Shown: in pieces, positions 30,479-43,537 of the stretch
How positions within the stretch are numbered: the stretch's first letter is position 1
Layout of the letters: the number at the start of each line of letters is the position of its first letter
From: Bifidobacterium sp. N4G05
Lineage (GTDB): Bacteria > Actinomycetota > Actinomycetes > Actinomycetales > Bifidobacteriaceae
Reading direction: 5' to 3'
Assembly: GCF_002742445.1 (NCBI RefSeq)
Contig: NZ_NJNQ01000003.1
Span: 1-64,000 of the forward strand
Length of the DNA stretch: 64,000 bases
Notes under the pieces: model-generated
What the model was told of the DNA's origin: nothing
Databases searched by the model: none
What the model saw: the letters and a program-made list of their open reading frames with translations, nothing else
Made by a program: the position numbers and the translations under genes

Positions 30479-32542
30479 TCAGAAACTACGCCGCAGCGAG
30501 ATATTACCGCTGACTTGCCGCAGTTCGTCTAAGGTTCTGCCGTCCGCAACTTTCCATACTATCCAACCGTTGATCTGCTTATTCTCGCCGGTTTCGAGCA
30601 TTCTGGCGCGGCGGAATGCGCCGGATGGGCTGTCGAATATCTCGCCATTGGACAGGCGGATGCGGTGGTCTTCGGTTACGGTTGCCGTGGCGGTTATGCC
30701 GGCATACCGGCTTTCCAGCACATCTCCGGCCGCGAGGACTCCGCGTTTGCACAAATCGGCGAAATCAACGGCATTCTGTTCACGTTCCCCTTGGCGCGCG
30801 TTCCGATTACGCAAAGTCCACATAACCTGTTCCCCTGCCGTGGGACGTACCCACACCTGCAGTGCGAGATCGGCAAGTCTGGCTCCGCGCTGCGCGATCT
30901 TCTGTTCATCCCATTGCGAAGCATCGTGCAGTTCCGCGGAAATGGATAGGTATTCGTTATCGTATCCGCCGACCGCACGGTTCTTCTTCTGTTCGAACGT
31001 TCCGTCGGAAAGCTCCGAATTGTATGCGGTCAGGGTCAGATTACCCAGACTGTTCGCCAATAGCGGGAATCGGTCGAGGTCTGCGAGCATATTGCGCCAT
31101 TCGGCGTGCGCCATGGCGTTCTGCGGCATAATGTGTTCGATGGTGTATTCGCTGAAGGACCGCGGATCCTTGGGGTGGTTATAGTTCTCCATGCCGGCAA
31201 GCAGATACTTGCATCGCCAGGCCGGCCGGTACAGGTTCTCGCCGAGCAACGCCTGTCTGAATTCACTGTCCGTAGGCATGCGTGTGGCTTTGGCGGTTTC
31301 GGTGATGAGTAGTGCGGCGAAGGTTTCGGCCAAATCATCTTCAGCCGAATCAAGTCTGACGATCAGCGACGGAACGAGCTTGTTCAATCCGTTGCTGGAT
31401 ACCGAGCAGATCATTCTGCGGAACAGATACGATTCAAGATCCGCAAGCATGCGCAGCAGTCCATCACAACTTACGCGATCACGCTTCCATGCCGCGAACA
31501 TGTACATAACCAACGGGTCCGTAACCTTGCTGCCCAGTTTTTGAATTGATTCGAGACGGCGGTCCACGTTCATATCGCAGCTGCCAGCGGCGGCAACGCC
31601 TTTGATAGCGGCATAGTATTTGGCGTATTCCAGCATGTTCGCCAGAAGATTACGCGTGCGTTCCATGCGCGGCAAGGAACTGTCGGCCGCGAAACGTTTG
31701 AATTCCGCGTACATGACGTGGCCTTTGAGCACGGGCTTTTTCAATGTAACGACCATCCAGTCGTGCAGGAACACATCGAATGAGAGGTTGCCGAGAACAC
31801 GTTCCATAGGCAGCCAATAGTCTTCGTATAAGGTTTTCTGCTCGGCCATGGAGCAACCCATGAGCATGTAGTTGCGTACCAGGTCGGAAGTCTCCAGATC
31901 AAGCCCGGTGGAATTCATTGATTCGAATACCAGTTGCGGTTCGTCACGATCTTGGTCCAAGGTGACAGACACGACTTCGAGACGCTGCAGACCGTTCCAT
32001 ACCACGTTTGCATCATCGATTGCGGCGACCAGAGAACGGAACAAATCAAGATTTGCTTCCAGCCGGGAACCCGTATTGGCATGGTTCGGCCGATCAGGGG
32101 CGACCACATGGTCGCACATGCCGTGCAACACTTCCCTATCGTCGCCGGAAAGCGTCAGCTTGTAGCGGCCTTCGCCGGTTGCATACTTGTCGACAAGATA
32201 GCCACGGTCGATGAGCATGTCTGCGGAGAATCGCAGGTTTTCAGGGCGCTCTCGAGCATATTCGGCCAGTGCAATAAGCAGCAGGGTCACCGAGGTGAGA
32301 CGCTGCTGGCCGTCAATAAGCTGGCATCGGCTGACGCCGTCCGGGCCGATGCCGCCTTCCTGCATCCATACGACCGACCCGGTGAAATGCGTTCTCTCAG
32401 GGTGCCTGCCAGCCGTTACAATGTCGGACCACAATTGCCGGCACTGCGCCTCGCCCCATGAGTATCTGCGCTGATACACCGGAACCACGAACCGAAGCGA
32501 ACCGGTCAATAAGTCCAGCAGGATTTTCTTGCCAGCGTCCAT
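30479..32542 (-). CDS. GmrSD-type restriction protein (DUF262-DUF1524-RAMA), C-terminally cut
   Basis: The 687-residue protein has a DUF262 (GmrS/ParB-like) NTPase domain with QRRYSW (residues 24-29) and DGQQRLTS. A DUF1524 HNH nuclease domain follows, with EYTIEHIMPQNAM around residue 470. Next is a RAMA-like modified-DNA reader (about 590-675: FADLCKRGVLAAGDVL, DSPSGAF, INGWIVWKV, TLDELR). The family cuts DNA with modified cytosines or other modified bases (type IV restriction). AGGGG precedes ATG 32542. A TGA at 30479-30481 removes a DUF4268-like tail, so activity may be altered. It is next to the ApeA-like gene, same strand. Confidence 0.85.
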   Translation of the reverse strand: MDAGKKILLDLLTGSLRFVVPVYQRRYSWGEAQCRQLWSDIVTAGRHPERTHFTGSVVWMQEGGIGPDGVSRCQLIDGQQRLTSVTLLLIALAEYARERPENLRFSADMLIDRGYLVDKYATGEGRYKLTLSGDDREVLHGMCDHVVAPDRPNHANTGSRLEANLDLFRSLVAAIDDANVVWNGLQRLEVVSVTLDQDRDEPQLVFESMNSTGLDLETSDLVRNYMLMGCSMAEQKTLYEDYWLPMERVLGNLSFDVFLHDWMVVTLKKPVLKGHVMYAEFKRFAADSSLPRMERTRNLLANMLEYAKYYAAIKGVAAAGSCDMNVDRRLESIQKLGSKVTDPLVMYMFAAWKRDRVSCDGLLRMLADLESYLFRRMICSVSSNGLNKLVPSLIVRLDSAEDDLAETFAALLITETAKATRMPTDSEFRQALLGENLYRPAWRCKYLLAGMENYNHPKDPRSFSEYTIEHIMPQNAMAHAEWRNMLADLDRFPLLANSLGNLTLTAYNSELSDGTFEQKKNRAVGGYDNEYLSISAELHDASQWDEQKIAQRGARLADLALQVWVRPTAGEQVMWTLRNRNARQGEREQNAVDFADLCKRGVLAAGDVLESRYAGITATATVTEDHRIRLSNGEIFDSPSGAFRRARMLETGENKQINGWIVWKVADGRTLDELRQVSGNISLRRSF

Positions 32543-32748: not shown

Positions 32749-34095
32749 CTACCATGCAATAAACCGACTAACCCTCTTACCAATTTCATCAGAAGAGACA
32801 CGTTCCTTCAACGTATTCCCGTCAGCACCTAATTGCAGACCTACCCACATTCGCGCAATGACCAATGATTGCATTGTCACGTCATACATTGTTTGGAAAT
32901 CTACGCCTTCCGCATCGCCATGCTTATTTCCGACGAATGCCTTTCTCATATTCCTTCTCCAATCTTCTGGATCAGTAAATGGAAAGACATCTCCTAATTC
33001 CTCTTGTACAGCCTCAAGCATTTGGTAAAAACCGGCAGATTGCATTTCACCGGTTTTGGAATTCCGTTTCATACGCTTTATCTGGTTCTTTGTCTTTACG
33101 ACATACCATCCAATGCAGTCAAGCATGGTCCCCGTCAGCATATTCAACGTTTCAAGGGCAAGATGTTCCTGTTCCTTCGCCACGTAGGCAAGAAGAGTCA
33201 TTCCTTGTTGACATCTATCTACTAGTTCAAGCCATTTCCGAATTCCTTCTTCACGGATGTCGGAAAAGCAAAAGAGATACTGAGACTCAGGATTCTCAAA
33301 ATGGGAACGGTCGACTCGCGGCATATATGACAAAACAGGATGCCACATCTCTCTCTTTTCCCCATCTAATTCGTAGAAATCCTCGTCCCGAAGAACCTCC
33401 AAGTCAGCAAACGTTCTTGGAACCCAATCAGAAATAGTAAGCAGGTTCATCAACGAGCGATGATAAAACAAATGCCATGTCCAATCCCGCAATTCATCTG
33501 TCCTAGTTTCGATGAAGACCATTTGTCGAGCAGTAACCTCATCTCTCCTCAAAGAAGTCTTTACAGAGCAACCAGGCCGCAGCTTCAATCCCACTGACGC
33601 ATCGACCACGATCTCATTGCGCGGTTCCGCAATCACTTCAGTTTTCTTTGAAGAACCGTCACCAAGAGAAAGCGAAAGTGAGGAAATTCCCGACCACGGT
33701 GACAAACCTGGAATGCCAGAACGCATCGCATGTATTTTTCCGAAATTCGTTTTACTATTCCCGAAAACTACGTATGTCGGAACGACAACTCCCGTCCCAG
33801 TTCCCGCAGATACAGAACCACTCACGCGACATCCCACAAGGGTATAAAACCTGCCATTCGATACTGTACGAATTATGTTCGGCAATTCCACTGGCTCAAG
33901 GGGCTTATCGTGGAGAACAACCATTCCACTCGATAAAAACCATTGCTGGTATTTGTCAAAATTGTCTCTGAATGGAACAGTGAGTTCGAAGCGTTTCCCT
34001 GTATCACGCAACATGGCTGCTACTTCTGCACAATTGCTATCAGGTTTTAATAGCCATGCAATAATCGGTTCCGTCAAATCTAATTTCTTGTCCAT
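32749..34095 (-). CDS. ApeA/HEPN-like defence protein
   Basis: The 448-residue protein has a beta-rich N-terminal half and a helical C-terminal half. The layout fits ApeA-type abortive-infection proteins, with an N-terminal sensor domain and a C-terminal HEPN RNase-like domain. A candidate HEPN site is KAFVGNKHGD near residue 395. The Arg normally paired with the His in Rx4-6H is not at the usual spacing (Arg lies 8 residues before His), so catalysis is uncertain. The gene is visibly AT-richer than its neighbours, a sign of transfer. It is divergent from the type III restriction operon and upstream of the GmrSD gene. It could also be a HEPN protein of another group. Confidence 0.55.
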   Translation of the reverse strand: MDKKLDLTEPIIAWLLKPDSNCAEVAAMLRDTGKRFELTVPFRDNFDKYQQWFLSSGMVVLHDKPLEPVELPNIIRTVSNGRFYTLVGCRVSGSVSAGTGTGVVVPTYVVFGNSKTNFGKIHAMRSGIPGLSPWSGISSLSLSLGDGSSKKTEVIAEPRNEIVVDASVGLKLRPGCSVKTSLRRDEVTARQMVFIETRTDELRDWTWHLFYHRSLMNLLTISDWVPRTFADLEVLRDEDFYELDGEKREMWHPVLSYMPRVDRSHFENPESQYLFCFSDIREEGIRKWLELVDRCQQGMTLLAYVAKEQEHLALETLNMLTGTMLDCIGWYVVKTKNQIKRMKRNSKTGEMQSAGFYQMLEAVQEELGDVFPFTDPEDWRRNMRKAFVGNKHGDAEGVDFQTMYDVTMQSLVIARMWVGLQLGADGNTLKERVSSDEIGKRVSRFIAW

Positions 34096-34223: not shown

Positions 34224-37200
34224 GTGACTCAGGGCTTTATTGATAACAGGACCTCGCTGGTCAAGGATGACCTTGTCCGTACGATACGCGAAGGCGACAG
34301 GATATCCATCGCGGCGGCATCGTTCTCGATGTACGCGTATAGGGAGTTGCGCGAGCAATTGGAGAGCGCAGGCTCATTCCGTTTCATTTACACGTCGAAG
34401 ACGTTCACCGAGGATGCCACCCCGAAGGAGCAACGCGAGTTCTACATCCCTCGCCTGGAACGCGAACAGAACCTGTACGGCACTCCGTTGGAAATTCGCC
34501 TACGCAACGAGCTCACGCAGAAGGCCATCGCCACGGAATGCGCCGATTGGATCCGCCGTAAGAAGGCACGGTTCATGTCGTTCGATGAGGGGTCGGACAT
34601 CACTCCATCCCTCATCGTGGAACATGACGATGAGAAAACCGCGTACATGCCGTTCAACGAGTTCACGACTACACAGCTGGGCGTGAGCCGACACGCCGCC
34701 TCATACCAAGGCGTCGCCAAGATGGAAGACTTCATGGCGGAGGGATTTCTGGACAAAATCAATGAGGCATGGAACAGCGGAGACTTGCATGACGTGACCG
34801 ACAAGGTCATCGACGGCATCGAGCGCATGTACCAAGAAAACCCGCCCGAACTCGTCTACTACATGGCCCTGTACCGTATCTTTAGCGAGTTCCTTGATGA
34901 CATCTCCGAGGATGTGCTACCGAAGGAAGGCACCGGTTTCCATGAAAGCCTGATCTGGAACAAGCTGTACGACTTCCAGAAGGACGCGGCCCTCGCAATC
35001 ATCAACAAGCTCGAAACATACAACGGCTGCATCTTGGCCGATTCGGTCGGTTTGGGCAAGACGTTCACCGCACTGGCCGTGGTCAAGTACTTCGAGGCCC
35101 GCAACCGCAACGTGCTTGTTCTGTGCCCGAAGAAGCTCAAGGACAACTGGGTCACGTACCGGTCAAACGCAACGAACAATCCAATCGCCGGCGACCATCT
35201 GCGTTACGATGTGCTGTTCCATACGGATCTGAGCCGCACGCGGGGCGATACGATTATGAACATCCCGATTGAACGGATCAACTGGGGCAACTATGATCTC
35301 GTCGTCATCGATGAGTCGCACAACTTCCGCAATGGCGCAGACAGCGCCGCCAAGGCCGACGACAAAGAAAACCGATACCAGAAGCTCCTCAACAAGGTCA
35401 TCCATTCCGGCGTGCCTACAAAGGTGCTTATGCTCTCCGCCACCCCGGTGAACAATCGTTTCCGCGATCTGCAGAACCAGCTCGAACTGGCCTACGGCGA
35501 CAAAGGCGATGAATGGTCCAGGAATCTCGGGCTTTCCACCAATATCGATATGGTGTTCCGTAACGCGCAGAAGGCTTACGGTGTCTGGTCGAAACTCGAA
35601 CCGGAGGAACGCAACACCAAACGTCTGATGGACATGCTCGACTTCGATTTCTTCCGTATCCTCGATCAGGTCACCGTTGCGCGCAGCCGCCGCCACATCC
35701 GTAACCATTACGATATGGATGCGATCGGCGGCTTCCCTGAACGTCTCCGCCCGCAGACCATCCGCCCGGCGCTGTCCACGGAAAGCGACTGCGTGTCTTA
35801 CGACGAGATCTATGACGAGTTGGAAAGGCTCACCCTCGCGTTGTACACCCCGTCCGAGTTCGTGCTCGAATCGCGCATGAGCAAGTACTTCGACGATGAC
35901 AAAATCGAAGGCCTGACCATCCGGGGCCGGGAGACTGGTGTGCGTAAGCTCATGGCCACGAACCTGCTCAAACGTTTCGAGAGCAGCGTCCACTCGTTCC
36001 GCATGACGTTGGATCGTGTGCTCGGCTACATGTCGGATACGGTCGGCACGATCGACTCGTATGAGGAATACCGTGCCAAACATTACGACACCGGCGTGCT
36101 TGAGCAAATTGATATTGATCGTTTCGACGACGGATTCGACCTAGACCAGGATGATACGGAGAGTATGGATCCGGACGAGTTCGCTACCAAAGGCAAGACC
36201 AGATTCCTGCTGTCCGACATGGATTGGCGCACCTGGCGCGATTGCATTCTTCGCGACATGGATGTTATCCACCGCCTGCTGGACATGGTTGCCGGCATCG
36301 ACGCAGCGCACGACGCGAAACTGCAGCGTCTGTACCGGACCATCAGCGACAAGCAGAACCAGCCCATCAACCCCGGCAATCGCAAGCTCCTCATCTTCAC
36401 CGCGTTCGCCGACACCGCCGACTACCTGTACGAACACGTCAGCGAGTATGCCGGCATGCTGGGCCTGAACACCGCGGAGGTGACCGGCACGAATCCGGGA
36501 CGCTGCACGGTCAGGAAGGTCGGCGGACACATGTCCGACATCCTTGCCTGCTTCTCTCCGGTCTCGAAGGAACGCAACCTGACCGCGCCCCGTCTGAAGG
36601 ACACGGACATTGACATTCTGATCGCCACAGACTGTATCTCCGAAGGGCAGAATCTGCAGGACTGCGACATGATGGTCAACTACGACATTCATTGGAATCC
36701 TGTGCGTATCATCCAGCGTTTTGGCCGCATCGACCGTATCGGCTCGACGAACAAACGTATCCAACTGGTCAACTACTGGCCCGACGTGGATCTCGACAAG
36801 TACCTCAGGCTCAAGGACAGGGTCGAGGCACGCATGAAGGTCGCTGTGATGGCTTCCACCGGCGACGATGACTACATCAATCTCGACGAGAAGGGAGATT
36901 TGGAGTACAGGGAACGTCAGCTCAGGCAGATGCAGGACGAGACACTTGATCTTGAAGATGTGGACGGCGGCGTCAGCATCACTGATCTCGGTCTCAATGA
37001 GTTCCGCATGGATCTAGTCGGCTATCATCGCGACAACCCTGACATAGAACGCACACCTACGGGCATCAACGCTGTGGTCGAGGGCAACGAGCCTGTCATC
37101 CTGTTCGTGCTGCGCAACACGAACAAGGACGTGAAGGCCGTGGGCCGCAACCCGATCCACCCCTATTATCTCGTACATGTCGGCGACGACAGAAGGATCC

Positions 37201-37511
37201 TGCACGGGCATCCGAATGCCAAGGACTGTCTCGACGTGATGCGCAAGCTGTGCAAAGGCAAGGATACATATGATCCGCGCCTATGCCGCGCATACAATCG
37301 GTTCACCCATGACGGCAGAGACATGCGCCACGCCTCCGGCCTGCTGCGCGACGCGGTCGGAAGCATCATGGACCAGGACGACATGGATGCCGCGGACGGG
37401 TTCTTCACCGGATCCATGGGGAATTTCCTTGACGAGAATGTGAAGGGGCTCGACGATTTCGAACTAGTTTGTTTCCTCGTCATCCGTCCTGCAACGGAAG
37501 GTAAGTCATGA
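34224..37511 (+). CDS. PLD-like/SNF2-type helicase of a type III restriction cluster
   Basis: This is a 1095-residue protein. Residues ~1-160 match the phospholipase D-like domain seen at the front of restriction-associated helicases (GFIDNRTSLVKDDL, IAAASFSMYAYREL, MPFNEFTTTQLG). The His-Lys of the HKD catalytic pair is not visible. The helicase core follows: DSVGLGKTFTALAV near residue 275, VVIDESHNFRN, LMLSATPVNN, and later ATDCISEGQNLQ and QRFGRIDRIGS. It should translocate on DNA. The stop overlaps the next start as ATGA, so it is the first gene of a translationally coupled operon. Composition is GC-rich, like the operon's other flanks. Confidence 0.85.
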   Translation: MTQGFIDNRTSLVKDDLVRTIREGDRISIAAASFSMYAYRELREQLESAGSFRFIYTSKTFTEDATPKEQREFYIPRLEREQNLYGTPLEIRLRNELTQKAIATECADWIRRKKARFMSFDEGSDITPSLIVEHDDEKTAYMPFNEFTTTQLGVSRHAASYQGVAKMEDFMAEGFLDKINEAWNSGDLHDVTDKVIDGIERMYQENPPELVYYMALYRIFSEFLDDISEDVLPKEGTGFHESLIWNKLYDFQKDAALAIINKLETYNGCILADSVGLGKTFTALAVVKYFEARNRNVLVLCPKKLKDNWVTYRSNATNNPIAGDHLRYDVLFHTDLSRTRGDTIMNIPIERINWGNYDLVVIDESHNFRNGADSAAKADDKENRYQKLLNKVIHSGVPTKVLMLSATPVNNRFRDLQNQLELAYGDKGDEWSRNLGLSTNIDMVFRNAQKAYGVWSKLEPEERNTKRLMDMLDFDFFRILDQVTVARSRRHIRNHYDMDAIGGFPERLRPQTIRPALSTESDCVSYDEIYDELERLTLALYTPSEFVLESRMSKYFDDDKIEGLTIRGRETGVRKLMATNLLKRFESSVHSFRMTLDRVLGYMSDTVGTIDSYEEYRAKHYDTGVLEQIDIDRFDDGFDLDQDDTESMDPDEFATKGKTRFLLSDMDWRTWRDCILRDMDVIHRLLDMVAGIDAAHDAKLQRLYRTISDKQNQPINPGNRKLLIFTAFADTADYLYEHVSEYAGMLGLNTAEVTGTNPGRCTVRKVGGHMSDILACFSPVSKERNLTAPRLKDTDIDILIATDCISEGQNLQDCDMMVNYDIHWNPVRIIQRFGRIDRIGSTNKRIQLVNYWPDVDLDKYLRLKDRVEARMKVAVMASTGDDDYINLDEKGDLEYRERQLRQMQDETLDLEDVDGGVSITDLGLNEFRMDLVGYHRDNPDIERTPTGINAVVEGNEPVILFVLRNTNKDVKAVGRNPIHPYYLVHVGDDRRILHGHPNAKDCLDVMRKLCKGKDTYDPRLCRAYNRFTHDGRDMRHASGLLRDAVGSIMDQDDMDAADGFFTGSMGNFLDENVKGLDDFELVCFLVIRPATEGKS

Positions 37512-38224
37512 GCGGCATCGAATCATGCGGACCTGTGACCGCACTCACGTTGGGACTGCCCAGCACCACCGCGGTCATGCATCCGAGGGGACGGCTCGCC
37601 AAAGAACGCTTCTATACGAACACCAAAGTAGGCAAACGCTTACGGCAGCATTTCATCGAGGACATCGACTCAATCACCATGCTCGCCGTAATCCGCGAGC
37701 AGGAGACCGGCATACCGACAGGACCGTTCACCAACGAAATCAACGTGATTGGCCTAGAGCAATCCACAGAACATCCGCCGCTGGAGGTCATGGAGCACAT
37801 CGCCCGCACCCGTGATGAACTGACCCATCACAGGTCGCGTATCCTGTTCGTCTGCGTGAATGGCGGCATGACAAGATTCGCGGTGTTTCGCAACGCGAAC
37901 GTGGCCGAAGGGCTCATGGAGGGCTCGGTTCATATGGGAGAACCGGTGGAATGCGAATCCGCACTCATTCGTCTGAGTGGAACCAATCTGGACACTGTAT
38001 GGGAGTCGTTGTGCGCGGAGACCATCCTCAGCGCGTCGGATCCGACGCGCGTCGACCGACGCATCGTGTCCCGCACGCGCATAATGAGACTTATCAAAGA
38101 AATAGACCAGCTGGAACGACGCCACGCCAGGACCGTCCAGATAGGCCAGCGGAACAGGCTATGGGACGATCTGCAGGCCAAGCGGCACGAGCTCGAACAG
38201 GAACAACAAGGAGAAACACTGTGA
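37508..38224 (+). CDS. DUF4391 domain protein
   Basis: The 238-residue protein matches DUF4391, a family found with restriction-modification helicases and Mod genes. It has a conserved KERFYTNTKVGKRLRQHFIEDI-type N-terminal region and a C-terminal coiled coil (about 190-235, KEIDQLERRHARTVQ). Its biochemical role is unknown; position suggests a bridge between the helicase and the Mod-Res complex. It overlaps the helicase by 4 nt (ATGA) and mod by 4 nt (GTGA). Confidence 0.75.
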   Translation: MSGIESCGPVTALTLGLPSTTAVMHPRGRLAKERFYTNTKVGKRLRQHFIEDIDSITMLAVIREQETGIPTGPFTNEINVIGLEQSTEHPPLEVMEHIARTRDELTHHRSRILFVCVNGGMTRFAVFRNANVAEGLMEGSVHMGEPVECESALIRLSGTNLDTVWESLCAETILSASDPTRVDRRIVSRTRIMRLIKEIDQLERRHARTVQIGQRNRLWDDLQAKRHELEQEQQGETL

Positions 38225-40302
38225 GTGACATCGAGAAGATCCACGGCATCACACCGGATTTGACCAGGGAGAACGTGGACAGACTGCTCGCCCTGTTTCC
38301 AGACGTGACCACCGAGATTACCGACCCGAAGACCGGCAGGACCGAACGCACGGTGGACTTCGACGCGCTGAAAGAGCGACTTGGTGATGTGGCGGAAGGC
38401 AACCGAGAACGCTACCAGTTCACTTGGCCCGGCAAACGCGAGGCGAAACGCCTCGCCCGCGAACCCATCGCCAAGACCCTGCGACCCGTCAAGGAACGCA
38501 GCAAGGACTGGGACACCACCAGGAACCTGTACATCGAGGGAGACAACCTCGACGCGTTGAAGCTCCTGCGCGAGAACTACGCCGGCAAAGTCAAGCTCAT
38601 CTACATCGACCCGCCCTACAACACCGGCCACGATTTCGTCTACGACGACGACTTCTCCCAAACCCATGACGAATTCAATGCCGAAAGCGGAGAATACAAC
38701 GAGGAAGGCGGCCGCCTGGTCGCCAATCCGGAAAGCAACGGGCGTTTCCATTCCGACTGGTGCTCGATGATCTACCCACGCCTCCTGCTTGCACGTGATC
38801 TGCTCACCCAGGATGGTGCCATTTTCATCAGCATCGACGACAACGAATCAAAGAATCTGCGTGCAATCTGCGATGAAATATTCGGCGAATCAAATTTCGT
38901 GGGTGACGTGATTTGGCAGAAAACATATTCGCCAAGAAACGATTCCAAAGGTATTCCAACTGAGACAGAACATATTTTAATTTATGCAAAGCAAGATGGC
39001 TGGACTCCAAAAAGATTAAAACGCACTACAGAAATGGACGATCGCTATGCAAGTTCTGATGGCGATCCAAGACCATGGTCTTCAGGAGATGCGGCAGCTC
39101 CTGGTGCCGCAACCCATCAGGGCATGGTCTATGCGATTCAGCATCCTATTACTGGAAGCATGCTTTACCCTCCGAACGGGCGGCACCGCCCGTTCGGAGG
39201 GCAAAGCATGCTGGAAATAATGAATGAATGGGCGGAATATGAGTTCCGTGATATTCATGATGAAGCAAGGCGTGCTGAAATCTGCGGAGTATCCCCTGAA
39301 GATGTGCGCAAAGGAGTTAAAGCACTCGTTCTTAAAAATCCATGCGAGGCTACTTTCAAGGCAGCACAGGAAAGATATGACAAAGGTCATTGGCCACGGC
39401 TGTACTTTACCAACAAAGGTAAAGGCGGAATGCGTCTTAAACGTTACCTTGATTCCATGGATGGGAAAATGCCAACCAATCTTTGGCCTTATTCTGAAGT
39501 GGGCCATACAGATGAGGCGAAAAAACAGCTTAAAACACTTTTTAACGATTCGGCACCTTTTGATACTCCCAAACCGACGCGTTTGATGAAACGCATGCTT
39601 GACATCGCCTCCGATAAGAACTCTCTTGTTCTGGATTTCTTTTCCGGCTCGGCGACCATGGGCGAAGCCGTCATCCAGAAAAATGCCGATGATGAGGGAC
39701 AGCGTAAATTCATCCTTGTTCAGCTGCCTGAAGAGACAACAGGCCAATACTCGACCCTCACGGACATCGGCGAGGAACGCATCCGCCGTGCCGGCGAGAA
39801 AATCAAGTCCGAGATTGAAGCGGAGAATGCGCAACTGACACTCGACGGCACTCCCAAGAAGGTGCCGGACATCGGCTTCCGTGTGCTCCGCGTGGATGAT
39901 TCGAATTACGAGGACAGGCGCAAGCTCGTCGACGAGTATTCCCAGAAGGACATCGACGACGACGTGGACATCACGAAAATGGACCGTTCCGATCTGGATC
40001 TGCTGTTCGAGGCGCTGCCGAAGTTCCAGTTGCCGTACGGCTCGAAGATCGACGTCCTGTCGGGAGGCGAGTTCGACGGCCACACCGTGTACAGCGTAAA
40101 CGACGGCCAGCTGCTCGCATGCTTCGAGGACAGTATCCCCGAATCGCTGGTCCGCGCGATGGCGGCGTTCAGTCCGCGTCCGTCCTATGTGCTGGTCTCC
40201 GAGAACGGTTTTCTGAACAGTGCTGCGCGTACGAACTTCACCGAGATCTTCAAGCAGTCCGCCGACGAGAAGACCGGCGCCACGCAGATCCGCATCATCT
40301 GA
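38221..40302 (+). CDS. mod: Type III restriction-modification methyltransferase Mod
   Basis: The 693-residue protein is a beta-class N6-adenine methyltransferase. The catalytic DPPY (YIDPPYNTGHDF) is near residue 132 and the SAM-binding FFSGSATMGEAV near residue 472. The target-recognition region sits between them. GTG 38221 is the start; AAGGAG lies 7 nt upstream, and the first protein segment VSDIEKIHGITPDL is typical of Mod. The segment from about 38860 to 39620 is clearly AT-richer than both flanks, indicating exchange of the recognition domain. It contains a 56-bp near-perfect palindrome (39157-39212). It overlaps the DUF4391 gene and is followed by res after 10 nt. Confidence 0.93.
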   Translation: MSDIEKIHGITPDLTRENVDRLLALFPDVTTEITDPKTGRTERTVDFDALKERLGDVAEGNRERYQFTWPGKREAKRLAREPIAKTLRPVKERSKDWDTTRNLYIEGDNLDALKLLRENYAGKVKLIYIDPPYNTGHDFVYDDDFSQTHDEFNAESGEYNEEGGRLVANPESNGRFHSDWCSMIYPRLLLARDLLTQDGAIFISIDDNESKNLRAICDEIFGESNFVGDVIWQKTYSPRNDSKGIPTETEHILIYAKQDGWTPKRLKRTTEMDDRYASSDGDPRPWSSGDAAAPGAATHQGMVYAIQHPITGSMLYPPNGRHRPFGGQSMLEIMNEWAEYEFRDIHDEARRAEICGVSPEDVRKGVKALVLKNPCEATFKAAQERYDKGHWPRLYFTNKGKGGMRLKRYLDSMDGKMPTNLWPYSEVGHTDEAKKQLKTLFNDSAPFDTPKPTRLMKRMLDIASDKNSLVLDFFSGSATMGEAVIQKNADDEGQRKFILVQLPEETTGQYSTLTDIGEERIRRAGEKIKSEIEAENAQLTLDGTPKKVPDIGFRVLRVDDSNYEDRRKLVDEYSQKDIDDDVDITKMDRSDLDLLFEALPKFQLPYGSKIDVLSGGEFDGHTVYSVNDGQLLACFEDSIPESLVRAMAAFSPRPSYVLVSENGFLNSAARTNFTEIFKQSADEKTGATQIRII
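39157..39212. repeat. Near-perfect palindrome inside mod
   Basis: Two 27-bp arms (39157-39183 and 39186-39212) are complementary at 26 of 27 positions and are separated only by CA. The arms begin AGCATGCTTT and end CGAACGGGCGG. The segment is in frame and encodes part of the target-recognition region. Confidence 0.95.
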
Positions 40303-40312
40303 GGTCACCGAT

Positions 40313-43300
40313 ATGCAATTCAAATTCTCGCAATACCAGTACCAGACCGATGCTGCGGACGCGGTATGCGACGTGTTCGACGGCCAGCCGCTGCAGGATG
40401 GCGTCTCCTATATCCGCGACACCGGTATCCGTAAGCCCGCATCCCAAGTGCTCAATCCCGCTCAGGACACTTTCGATATCCCCGAGTTGAGGCCGGCGCA
40501 GGAGATGCTCGGCCATTTCGACGCGGATGACGACACGGGCTACCGCAACGCGGACCTGCTGCTGGACGGCGAAAGGCTGCTCGCCAACATCAAAAACGTG
40601 CAATGCCGGCAGAACCTGACGGAATCCCCGAAGCTGTACACGGATCCGGCCGGTGCCGTCGAACTGGACGTGGAGATGGAAACCGGCACGGGCAAGACTT
40701 TCGTATACACGAAGACCATGTTCGAATTGAACCGCAGGTATGGCTGGTCGAAGTTCATCGTCGTGGTCCCGTCCATCGCCATCCGCGAGGGCGTCGCCAA
40801 ATCGTTGGACATGACAGGCGACTATTTCTACACGTCCGGCCGCGACGGCAACGAGGGCTATGGGAAGAAACTGCACTCCTTCATCTACGACTCGTCGAAT
40901 CTGAACCGGCTGGACGAATTCGCCCAGTCCTCGGACATCCAGGTGATGGTCATCAACATGCAGGCGTTCAACACGTCCATGAAGGAGAACGGGCGTAGCA
41001 GGGACGCGAGAATCATCTTCTCGGAACGTGACGATTTCGGCTCGCGCCGCCCGATCGACGTGATCAGTGCGAGCCATCCGATCATGATCCTGGACGAGCC
41101 GCAGAAGATGGGAGGCAAGGCCACGCAGGCGGGCATACGCCTGTTCAAACCATTGTTCACGCTGAACTATTCCGCCACGCACAAGATAAAGCACGACCTC
41201 GTGTATGCACTGGACGCGCTGGACGCGTACAACCAGCGTCTGGTCAAGCGCATCGAGGTCAAAGGCTTCGAGCTGAACAACATGCGCGGCACCGACGGCT
41301 ACCTGTATCTGCAGGACGTCATCGTCAGCAAAAACAGGGCGCCGCAGGCCCGTATCGAATACAAGAAGCTGTCCTCGGCCGGTAAGGTCGTGACCACGTC
41401 CGGACTGTTCGACGAGGGCGACGATGTCTACACCGCGTCCGGCGGGCTAGAGGCGTACCGCGACGGCTGGCGCATCGCTCCGGACGGCATCGTGCCCGAC
41501 GGCCTGGAGCCGGGCCGGACCGGCTACGTGCGGTTCATGAATGGCGAGACGCTCGGCAAGGGCCGTATCATGAACGACGGATCCGAGGCAGACATGCGCC
41601 GCGTGCAGATCCGCGAGACCATCCTCTCCCACCTGCACAAGGAGGAGCACCTGTGGGCGCGAGGCATCAAATGCCTGAGCCTGTTCTTCATCGACGAGGT
41701 CGCGAAATACCGACAGTACGACGATGACGGCGAGCCGTTGAACGGCGAGTACGCGAACATGTTCGAGCAGGAGTACGACCGTTGCGTGCATGATTTCGTC
41801 GAGAACCGTCTCGACGACGGGTCCAGCTATCTCGACTGGCTACGCACCACACACGGCCGTTACGTGCACAAGGGATATTTCAGCATCGACAAGCACGGTC
41901 ATTCCATCGACTCGAAAGTCAAACGCGGGTCGGAAGACAGCGACGACATCAGCGCATACGACCTGATTCTGAAAAACAAGGAACGACTGTTGAGCTTCGA
42001 CGAGCCCACGAGGTTCATCTTCAGCCATTCCGCACTGCGCGAGGGATGGGACAACCCGAACGTGTTCCAGATCTGCACGTTGAAGCATTCGGACAACGAG
42101 GTCGGCAAACGCCAGGAGGTCGGACGCGGCCTACGCCTGTGCGTGAACCGCGAGGGCGTGCGTCAGGATCGTAACCTGCTCAGCGACGCGGACTTCCTTG
42201 ACGTGAACCTGTTGACCGTTATCGCGTCGGAAAGCTACGAAAGGTTCGCCGAAAGCCTGCAGAAGGACATCGAGACCGACCTGCGAGAGCGGCCAATCGT
42301 CATCAACGATGCGTTCTTCGCCAAGACATGCGTTCCGGCCGACAAGCTCGGTCCAGAGTATGCGGGCTTGGGAGACGTGTCGTTCAGCAAGGACGAGGCG
42401 CGTGACATCGTGTACGCGCTGACCGTGGACCGGCTCATCGACCGCGACGGCAAGCTGACCGGCAAGTACAAGGAAGAGCGTTTCGGCAAGGATACGGTGG
42501 AACTTCTGCCAGAACCCTTGCGAAAGAAGGTCCCGGCAATCCGTCTCGTGCTGGACAGCGTGGTGGAAGGCACCACCAAGGTGCTGATCGGCAACGCATT
42601 GAAGCGTAAGGTACATGGCAATCCGCTCAATGCCAACTGGCAGAAGAAGGAGTTCCAGGAGCTCTGGAGGCGCATCAACCACAAGTATGCGTATACCGTC
42701 AGCTTCGACGACGACGAACTCGTCAAAAACGCAGTCAAGGCAATTGACGAGCGTCTGGTCGTATCGAAACTGTCCTACACGGTCACGCGCGGCATCCAGA
42801 AGGAGAACGCTTCACGCAACGAGCTCGCGGACCGCACCCACTTCCACAGGAACGACTCCCATACCGACGACTTGGATGTCGACGCATCCAACGGCGTGAA
42901 ATATGATCTGCTTGGCGAGATCGCGCAGGCTGCGACCATCACGCGTCGTTGTGCGGCACGCATCCTCAAGAGCATTCGGCCGGACCGGTTCCTCATGTTC
43001 AGAGACAATCCAGAGCAGTTCATCGCGAGGGTCGGCCGTCTGATTGTTCAGGAGAAGGCGAACATGGTCGTTGACCATATCTGCTACGACCGGATCGAAG
43101 GCGGATACGATTCGAGCATCTTCACCAAGGGCGGCAACAATCGTGATGAGGCCGAAGGCTATCAGGCGTCTAAGTGCGTGCAGGACTGGGTGTTCCCCGA
43201 TGGCAGGATCGAAAGCGATTTCGCCAAGGACCTCGATAACGCGGCGGAAGTCGCGGTGTATGCGAAACTGCCGCGTGGATTCCAGATTCCGACCCCGGTC

Positions 43301-43537
43301 GGCAACTACGCCCCTGACTGGGCCGTGGCCTTCCGCGACGACAGCGGTCTCAAGCACCTGTTCTTCGTCGCCGAAACCAAGGGCAGCCTGGAATCATTCG
43401 ACCTGCGTGGAATTGAGAACAGCAAGATAGCCTGCGCGAAACGACTGTTCAACCAACTCGATCTCGCAGATGGAACCCGTTACGAGCAGGCCACCACCTA
43501 TCAGACCCTGCTTGACGAAGTGAAAGCATTGCAATAA
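40313..43537 (+). CDS. res: Type III restriction endonuclease Res subunit
   Basis: The 1074-residue protein pairs an SF2 helicase with a C-terminal nuclease. Walker A is METGTGKTFVYTK (about 122), the Walker B variant ILDEPQKMGG (about 260), and helicase motif VI lies around EVGKRQEVGRGLRLCVN. The nuclease has a PD-(D/E)xK signature, YAPDWAVAF (about 1000) and VAETKGSLES (about 1020). With Mod it would cut unmodified DNA after ATP-driven sliding between inversely oriented sites. ATG 40313 follows GAGG; the in-frame extension to 40220 overlaps mod. The gene appears intact. Confidence 0.93.
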   Translation: MQFKFSQYQYQTDAADAVCDVFDGQPLQDGVSYIRDTGIRKPASQVLNPAQDTFDIPELRPAQEMLGHFDADDDTGYRNADLLLDGERLLANIKNVQCRQNLTESPKLYTDPAGAVELDVEMETGTGKTFVYTKTMFELNRRYGWSKFIVVVPSIAIREGVAKSLDMTGDYFYTSGRDGNEGYGKKLHSFIYDSSNLNRLDEFAQSSDIQVMVINMQAFNTSMKENGRSRDARIIFSERDDFGSRRPIDVISASHPIMILDEPQKMGGKATQAGIRLFKPLFTLNYSATHKIKHDLVYALDALDAYNQRLVKRIEVKGFELNNMRGTDGYLYLQDVIVSKNRAPQARIEYKKLSSAGKVVTTSGLFDEGDDVYTASGGLEAYRDGWRIAPDGIVPDGLEPGRTGYVRFMNGETLGKGRIMNDGSEADMRRVQIRETILSHLHKEEHLWARGIKCLSLFFIDEVAKYRQYDDDGEPLNGEYANMFEQEYDRCVHDFVENRLDDGSSYLDWLRTTHGRYVHKGYFSIDKHGHSIDSKVKRGSEDSDDISAYDLILKNKERLLSFDEPTRFIFSHSALREGWDNPNVFQICTLKHSDNEVGKRQEVGRGLRLCVNREGVRQDRNLLSDADFLDVNLLTVIASESYERFAESLQKDIETDLRERPIVINDAFFAKTCVPADKLGPEYAGLGDVSFSKDEARDIVYALTVDRLIDRDGKLTGKYKEERFGKDTVELLPEPLRKKVPAIRLVLDSVVEGTTKVLIGNALKRKVHGNPLNANWQKKEFQELWRRINHKYAYTVSFDDDELVKNAVKAIDERLVVSKLSYTVTRGIQKENASRNELADRTHFHRNDSHTDDLDVDASNGVKYDLLGEIAQAATITRRCAARILKSIRPDRFLMFRDNPEQFIARVGRLIVQEKANMVVDHICYDRIEGGYDSSIFTKGGNNRDEAEGYQASKCVQDWVFPDGRIESDFAKDLDNAAEVAVYAKLPRGFQIPTPVGNYAPDWAVAFRDDSGLKHLFFVAETKGSLESFDLRGIENSKIACAKRLFNQLDLADGTRYEQATTYQTLLDEVKALQ

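What the first reader, a model, noticed from the sequence alone, without database searches (positions are those of the whole stretch)
34224..43537. Four-gene coupled operon: PLD-like helicase, DUF4391, Mod, Res
A classical type III system needs only mod and res. Here a PLD-like/SNF2-type helicase and a DUF4391 protein precede them. ATGA and GTGA overlaps join helicase to DUF4391 and DUF4391 to mod, and 10 nt separate mod from res, so the four products are made together. The PLD-like domain lacks a visible HKD catalytic pair, suggesting it binds rather than cuts. The set may be an expanded type III defence system in which the helicase and DUF4391 add a function such as loading, inhibition of self-damage, or extra interference. 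Gene families are established; the joint function is inference.
Basis: partly seen in the sequence, partly recalled or inferred. Interest (0 to 1): 0.72.

Follow-up and report, generated by a model that had tools for sequence, protein, structure and literature searches.

The report
Four-gene type III restriction module
A Bifidobacterium genome carries a DNA-cutting defence system in which the usual two genes (mark own DNA, cut foreign DNA) come with a motor protein and a small unknown protein, and the same four genes in the same order turn up across bacteria and at least one archaeon, so many type III systems appear to have two overlooked parts.

Summary
In detail: helicase (34224-37511), DUF4391 (37508-38224), mod (38221-40302) and res (40313-43537) are intact, co-directional and joined by ATGA, GTGA and a 10-nt gap. 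The helicase's N-terminus is predicted as a PLD fold (best match SauUSI) without any HKD motif in 46 relatives; its SNF2 ATPase motifs are intact. The order helicase-DUF4391-mod-res is conserved: of 80 related helicase loci from many phyla, all 51 with at least 9.5 kb downstream sequence hold all four genes, and DUF4391 follows the helicase with a median 1-nt gap. Modules also lie on plasmids (E. coli, Acinetobacter, Listeria, Enterococcus, an archaeon) and one phage record. Classical P1/StyLTI-like systems have two genes and a different Res branch. A helicase-like ATPase 5' of mod was already published for some type III systems (Murray 2021); DUF4391, the PLD fold and the four-gene unit were not in the literature I could search. 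Function is inferred: most likely an accessory DNA-translocating complex that helps restriction in cells. New variant of type III restriction-modification.

The parts
34224..37511 (+). HEL: SNF2-family ATPase with N-terminal HKD-less PLD-like domain, 1095 aa, GTG start
   Evidence: motifs GLGKT, DESH, SATP, QRFGR invariant in 11 relatives
34224..34817 (+). PLD-like domain of HEL (about residues 1-198), no HKD catalytic motif
   Evidence: AlphaFold2 model (mean pLDDT 72) matches SauUSI Z 12.4, NgoAVII R protein Z 11.4, pseudo-PLD FAM83B Z 11.7; no HKD in 46 sequences
34956..36833 (+). SNF2 helicase core of HEL (about residues 245-870)
   Evidence: Pfam SNF2-rel_dom and Helicase_C; nearest solved relative RapA
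37508..38224 (+). DUF4391 protein, 238 aa: alpha/beta N-terminal part and C-terminal helical hairpin
   Evidence: PF14335 84.6 bits; AlphaFold2 model mean pLDDT 92.6, pTM 0.87; no confident fold match
38221..40302 (+). mod: type III beta-class DNA methyltransferase, 693 aa, GTG start, DPPY at residue 130, FSGS at 474
   Evidence: nearest solved relatives are type III adenine Mods 6k0w and EcoP15I Mod 4zcf
40313..43537 (+). res: type III restriction subunit, 1074 aa, GTGKT, DEPQ, C-terminal PD..ETK nuclease
   Evidence: nearest solved relative EcoP15I Res 4zcf
43178..43492 (+). RE_endonuc domain of Res (PD-(D/E)xK type, residues 956-1060)
   Evidence: PF19778 96.3 bits; PDWAV...ETKG in sequence

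Best explanation
It is a four-gene type III restriction-modification system. SHOWN by sequence: an intact type III Mod (beta-class methyltransferase) and Res (SF2 motor plus PD-(D/E)xK nuclease) in one co-directional cluster with an SNF2 ATPase carrying an HKD-less PLD-like domain and a DUF4391 protein, all four conserved together across phyla. INFERRED from EcoP15I-type enzymes: Mod marks one strand of an asymmetric site, and on unmarked DNA Mod-Res uses ATP to slide and cuts when two complexes meet. INFERRED and uncertain: HEL and DUF4391 form an accessory motor complex that acts on the same foreign DNA in the cell. The PLD-like domain and DUF4391 serve as DNA- or partner-binding parts, and the SNF2 engine moves along duplex DNA, clearing bound proteins ahead of sliding Mod-Res or reworking cut ends. 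Cleavage by Mod-Res alone would remain possible in vitro, but restriction of real phage DNA in cells would be weaker without HEL-DUF4391.
For: Order and linkage: all 51 loci with enough downstream sequence are complete; HEL-to-DUF4391 gap median 1 nt, 65 of 78 at 30 nt or less. Same unit on plasmids, E. coli chromosomes, an archaeal plasmid and a phage record. Pairwise distances of the four proteins correlate in 90 modules, highest for HEL with DUF4391 (rho 0.76; permuted maximum 0.16). HEL is the most conserved of the four (median identity 54%, against 48% Res, 43% Mod, 24% DUF4391), so it is under selection. ATPase motifs are invariant. Nearest solved relative by sequence is RapA, an SNF2 ATPase that acts on DNA-bound RNA polymerase (RapA's role is from general knowledge). 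PLD fold with the catalytic residues gone. DUF4391 lacks a nuclease signature: only P18, K32 and Q211 reach 99%. Published relatives carrying an extra ATPase methylate with Mod alone and cut in a preparation without that ATPase (PMC8259958), which fits an accessory role.
Against: No functional data exist for HEL or DUF4391. It is not established that the ATPase of PMC8259958 is this HEL. The distance correlations could come partly from shared descent. Modules without one part occur: L113 has DUF4391-mod-res without HEL, L112 lacks res nearby, and phage pCD1602_4 (L255) has mod-res of this clade without HEL or DUF4391 in the 7 kb upstream, so mod-res may work alone.
Confidence: 0.5

Rival explanations
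1. HEL-DUF4391 guards the host: it prevents or removes Mod-Res action on the cell's own newly replicated or damaged DNA (a built-in restriction-alleviation device), rather than helping attack.
For: Placing HEL and DUF4391 first in the operon would have them made before Mod and Res. A type III nuclease must be kept in check on hemimethylated DNA (general knowledge). Strict linkage fits an antidote as well as an effector.
Against: Classical two-gene type III systems live without it. Mod-res of this clade without HEL or without the pair exists (L113, L255).
Confidence: 0.15
2. HEL-DUF4391 is an integral part of the restriction holoenzyme that changes its cutting rule, for example letting it cut at a single site or in cis over longer distances.
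For: All four proteins co-vary in 90 modules; the Res of these systems forms a branch apart from P1- and StyLTI-like Res.
Against: In published relatives with an extra ATPase, the partially purified enzyme contained only Mod and Res peptides and still cut partially (PMC8259958); identity of that ATPase with HEL is not shown.
Confidence: 0.2
3. HEL-DUF4391 is an independent defence pair that merely travels with type III genes in defence islands.
For: The neighbourhood is a defence island (ApeA-type and GmrSD/RAMA genes beside it); unrelated cargo genes lie between DUF4391 and mod in some relatives.
Against: HEL of this family was not found without DUF4391-mod-res when the contig was long enough; in the phylum sample all HEL relatives above 450 bits lie at DUF4391 loci, and the next hits drop to 222 bits.
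Confidence: 0.1
4. DUF4391 is a general cellular protein borrowed by type III systems, and the linkage in the window is incidental.
For: 74 of 112 genomes of the genus carry DUF4391, mostly without type III genes within 8 kb.
Against: The stand-alone copies are one clade (support 100) beside the genus's module copies, with other module copies outside both; the direction of change rests on midpoint rooting. Outside the genus DUF4391 is rare (12 other genomes of 396) and next to type III genes.
Confidence: 0.05

Closest known systems
Classical type III restriction-modification (EcoP15I, EcoP1I, StyLTI-like)
   Same: Mod and Res subunits with the same domains and order; EcoP15I subunits are among the nearest solved structures
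   Different: Two genes only; their Res forms a separate branch; no SNF2-PLD helicase or DUF4391
Type III systems with an extra helicase-like ATPase 5' of mod (Eco86II, BspHIV; Murray et al. 2021, PMC8259958)
   Same: An SF2 helicase-like gene precedes mod-res, in more than 500 genomes according to the authors
   Different: Described as immediately 5' of mod, with about 140 bp of non-coding DNA in BspHIV, so no gene between; DUF4391 and a PLD domain are not mentioned; these systems make m4C. I could not locate the Eco86II locus to compare the helicases
DrmD-type SNF2 helicase with mod-res, some with AIPR, Abi or AAA-peptidase genes between (L244, L245, L231, L248-L250)
   Same: SNF2 helicase first, then mod and res; L244/L245 Res lies inside the Res clade of the four-gene systems
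   Different: Helicase scores 580-680 bits to a PADLOC DrmD model and starts almost directly with the SNF2 core; only 24% identity to HEL; no DUF4391
BREX-related type 2 systems (HKD-Snf2 helicase + N6-MTase + DUF499 + DUF3780; PMC12839542)
   Same: PLD/HKD domain fused N-terminally to an SNF2 helicase beside an adenine methyltransferase
   Different: Its HKD is taken as the nuclease effector; has DUF499 ATPase and DUF3780 instead of Res and DUF4391
DISARM (DrmD)
   Same: SNF2 helicase DrmD is a distant relative of HEL (NCBIfam 139 bits, far under the 610 cut-off); methylase-based defence
   Different: No DrmA or DrmB among the window proteins scanned; has type III Res
SauUSI type IV restriction enzyme
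   Same: PLD domain at the N-terminus of an SF2 helicase; best fold match
   Different: HEL has no HKD and stands with its own Mod and Res

Membership tests
Type III restriction-modification | Mod: beta-class amino-methyltransferase of type III family | tested here: met
   PADLOC MTase_III 637 bits over residues 6-683; DPPY and FSGS motifs; EcoP15I Mod homology
Type III restriction-modification | Res: SF2 motor with C-terminal PD-(D/E)xK nuclease | tested here: met
   ResIII and RE_endonuc, REase_III 878 bits, GTGKT, DEPQ, PDWAV..ETK, EcoP15I Res
Type III restriction-modification | Adjacent mod and res in one operon | tested here: met
   10-nt gap
Type III restriction-modification | One-strand methylation of an asymmetric site; ATP-dependent two-site cleavage | not testable with these tools
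   needs long-read methylome and enzyme assays
Helicase-associated type III systems of Murray et al. 2021 | Same extra ATPase family directly 5' of mod | tested here: inconclusive
   Here DUF4391 lies between; the Eco86II locus was not found
Helicase-associated type III systems of Murray et al. 2021 | m4C modification | not testable with these tools
   nearest solved Mods are adenine type, but sequence alone does not settle the base
DISARM | DrmD above the family cut-off | tested here: not met
   139.5 bits against a cut-off of 610
DISARM | DrmA and DrmB present | tested here: inconclusive
   none among the seven window proteins scanned; the rest of the window was not scanned
PLD/HKD nuclease | PLD fold | tested here: met
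PLD/HKD nuclease | HxK(x)4D catalytic motif | tested here: not met
   absent in the window protein and not conserved in 46 relatives
BREX-related type 2 | DUF499 and DUF3780 | tested here: not met
   no such domain in the four genes or the three neighbours scanned

The most novel reading that the evidence does not exclude
The four genes are one machine: a distinct, very widespread subtype of type III restriction in which a second, SNF2-type motor bearing a dead PLD domain, together with DUF4391 of a fold without a known match, is a required part of restriction in cells, and in which helicase types and middle genes (DUF4391, AIPR, AAA-peptidase, none) have been exchanged during evolution.
Probability: 0.35. 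Interest if true: 0.72.

Novelty: new variant of a known kind. Interest (0 to 1): 0.52.

Why it matters
Type III enzymes are taught as two-subunit systems. If the helicase and DUF4391 are working parts, many annotated 'DEAD/DEAH helicase + methyltransferase' loci are incomplete as described, in vitro work on Mod-Res alone may miss how they act on phage DNA in cells, and defence-finding software overlooks DUF4391 (no PADLOC or NCBIfam model hit it). The strict four-gene linkage makes the question testable by simple gene deletions.

Tried and rejected
Eco86II (E. coli NCTC86): three 49-kb stretches chosen by guess held no type III genes; DNA searches with three E. coli helicases did not list the strain (not all rows shown); the genome was not searchable by protein. 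So identity of the published ATPase with HEL stays open. BPTD_3080-type Res was followed as a possible Murray family: rare (4 of 146 over cut-off), no HEL relative found in the stretches read. DUF4391 fold: no PDB or viral match with E at or below 0.001; VIA-align rows cover mainly the helical hairpin (185-238), so the alpha/beta part was barely tested; weak Holliday-junction-resolvase rows (E 0.19-0.33) were not taken as evidence because no PD-(D/E)xK residues are conserved. tblastn with the window DUF4391 found nothing in plasmids or phages: a false negative from divergence, since DUF4391 is there. Phase-variable repeats in the window's own module: none. Promoter-like sites: no more than in shuffled sequence. 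The idea that DUF4391 usually stands alone was rejected after the tree.
Full report
Observation. The four ORFs exist at the stated coordinates on the + strand. HEL and DUF4391 overlap by ATGA (37508-37511) and DUF4391 and mod by GTGA (38221-38224); mod and res are 10 nt apart. Profile searches give SNF2/Helicase_C for HEL (and PADLOC 'HKD+Snf2' at 371 bits), DUF4391, a type III Mod (637 bits) and a type III Res with RE_endonuc nuclease (878 bits). Motifs: HEL GLGKT, DESH, SATP, QRFGR; Mod DPPY and FSGS; Res GTGKT, DEPQ, PDWAV...ETKG. Nearest solved relatives are EcoP15I Res, type III Mods 6k0w and 4zcf and, for HEL, RapA. Host: the assembly is 2.07 Mb, and a DUF4391 of Bifidobacterium pluvialisilvae lies among the module copies of its genus, so the host is taken to be a Bifidobacterium (inference).

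PLD-like domain. An alignment of 46 HEL N-termini has invariant N8, F34, S35, E72, E81, E90, N95, Q99, C106, W109, F147, T148 and G153, among others, but no conserved H-K-D set. The AlphaFold2 model (mean pLDDT 72; residues 64-90 and parts of 205-236 poor) matches PLD folds: SauUSI Z 12.4 (rmsd 4.1, 154 aligned), FAM83B Z 11.7 (3.1, 141), NgoAVII R protein Z 11.4 (4.1, 157), BfiI Z 10.5. Binding rather than cutting is an inference.

DUF4391. The model is confident (mean pLDDT 92.6, pTM 0.87; an alpha/beta part and a C-terminal two-helix hairpin) but has no confident match in PDB or BFVD. Only P18, K32 and Q211 reach 99% identity, and E is at 92% at position 209. I see no nuclease signature.

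Is the set a unit? In 396 genomes of the phylum, 12 genomes besides the window's have DUF4391. All 12 have mod adjacent, 11 have HEL, and 9 hold all four; the other three are cut by the contig end (L110), lack res within 8 kb (L112) or lack HEL (L113). A scan of GTDB genomes with the HEL alignment returned 80 loci from Actinomycetota, Bacillota, Bacteroidota, Pseudomonadota, Verrucomicrobiota, Planctomycetota and others. This list is the best 80 of 580 relatives, so it says nothing about distant helicases. Of these, 64 hold all four genes, including every one (51) with at least 9.5 kb downstream; the incomplete ones are on short contigs. In L153 only a broken DUF4391 remnant is found, and L176 ends 342 nt after HEL. 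The gap HEL to DUF4391 has median 1 nt and is 30 nt or less in 65 of 78. The gaps DUF4391-mod and mod-res are often wider (29 of 70 and 31 of 64 over 300 nt). Fifteen of the inserted ORFs form one cluster that looks AlbA/Schlafen-like by eye, and others look like DUF262 or RhuM; these names were not tested by profile. In 22 HEL genomes DUF4391 was found in 21, mostly once. In 146 Pseudomonadales genomes DUF4391 occurs in 8: the six strong hits lie in modules, one of them on a short contig without res, and the two weak ones in decayed loci.

Mobile elements and E. coli. Plasmid records with HEL: 101. Annotated examples from Mycolicibacterium, Listeria, Acinetobacter, E. coli, Weissella, Vibrio, Enterococcus and the archaeon Methanomethylovorans show the four genes in order; in Listeria and Vibrio the DUF4391 gene bears another name but matches the profile. 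E. coli chromosomes with it include CFT073, MB64 and H6; helicase DNA relatives occur in 68 to 88 of 5426 E. coli genomes, by query. The record of Erysipelothrix phage phi1605 carries the module. By contrast P1 and a Salmonella StyLTI-like locus have mod-res only, and phage pCD1602_4 has mod-res of this clade with no HEL or DUF4391 in the 7 kb upstream.

Evolution. In a Res tree of 34 sequences, the 22 four-gene Res and two with a different helicase (L244, L245) form one group (support 95), next to P1 and StyLTI-like Res. L244 and L245 carry a DrmD-type SNF2 helicase (581-678 bits) directly before mod, only 24% identical to HEL. AIPR-containing operons (L231-L236, L249) branch deeper; long branches make that placement unsure. 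So association of type III mod-res with an SNF2 helicase arose or was exchanged more than once. Pairwise distances of the four proteins over 90 modules correlate (0.57 to 0.76; permuted maxima 0.16 to 0.26), highest for HEL-DUF4391; HEL is the most conserved protein.

In the genus, 74 of 112 genomes have DUF4391, and 60 of the loci read have no type III genes within 8 kb. A tree puts the 27 of these that were sampled in one clade (support 100) beside the genus's module copies, with module copies of other families outside: most simply one escape from the module, rather than the ancestral state, although the rooting is by midpoint. It does not refute the composite-system idea, but shows that DUF4391 can have a life of its own.

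Literature. DUF4391 occurs in one open-access paper of the library, in a table of host-range traits; its Pfam and InterPro numbers in none. Subscription papers, preprints and supplements were not searched. Murray et al. 2021 (PMC8259958) reported two type III m4C systems, Eco86II and BspHIV, with an extra helicase-like ATPase 5' of mod, close to mod-res in over 500 genomes, not needed for methylation and not seen by mass spectrometry in a partially purified, partially cutting Eco86II preparation. That predates and overlaps this finding. Its description (immediately 5' of mod; 140 bp non-coding gap) fits the DrmD-type arrangement better than HEL-DUF4391-mod, but I could not fetch the loci. A 2026 BREX survey (PMC12839542) describes BREX-related type 2 systems with an HKD-Snf2 fusion taken to be active, DUF499 and DUF3780, a different set.

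Mechanism and verdict. Mod-Res supplies marking and cutting by homology. HEL-DUF4391 is most likely an accessory ATP-driven DNA-remodelling pair that helps restriction in cells: active motor, dead nuclease fold, tight coupling of the two genes, strict linkage, highest conservation. No functional data were available, hence confidence 0.5. The genomic unit itself I regard as near certain. Novelty: a new variant of type III restriction-modification whose helicase part is in part already known.

Noticed in passing
L044-L108 (stand-alone DUF4391 loci, genus of the window): About two thirds of the genus carries DUF4391, mostly without type III genes, as one clade beside the module copies: apparent one-time escape or domestication of a restriction-module gene. 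Three loci have EF-Tu just upstream; others have different neighbours.
   Followed up: partly
window 32749-34095 (-) and 30479-32542 (-): Beside the module lie an ApeA_NTD1 protein (PF18862) and a GmrSD-type protein with a RAMA domain: a defence island.
   Followed up: partly
L100:8671-13026 and L104:8671-13059: In two relatives the HEL ORF continues in frame upstream into a domain with an HELGH motif like ImmA/IrrE metalloproteases, suggesting a protease-helicase fusion.
   Followed up: no
L111:10381 and L137:9127, 9289: Heptanucleotide repeats inside mod (18 x CAACGAT; 8 x and 7 x AAGCTCC), as expected for phase-variable type III mods; the window's module has none.
   Followed up: partly
L101 (G415), mod: Near-identical module whose mod has a 1-bp deletion against the window: inactivation or an assembly error.
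   Followed up: no
L250:7905-17700 (E. coli BMH-17-0027): SNF2 helicase, AAA ATPase, S8 peptidase, methyltransferase and DEAD/DEAH helicase in one row: another helicase-led type III-like operon with a protease.
   Followed up: no
L249 and L231-L236: SNF2 helicase, AIPR protein (with an Abi gene in L249), mod and a shorter Res (about 905-915 aa): a further helicase-led arrangement without DUF4391.
   Followed up: partly
L253:6374-7087 (phage phi1605) and L215:4960-5943: The DUF4391 protein is annotated as a 'chemotaxis protein', probably because of its helical hairpin; text searches by name will miss it.
   Followed up: yes
L213:12925-16217 (E. coli H6): An OLD-like ATP-dependent nuclease gene and a DUF2130 gene sit between DUF4391 and mod; the spaces on either side of mod are cargo sites in many relatives.
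   Followed up: partly
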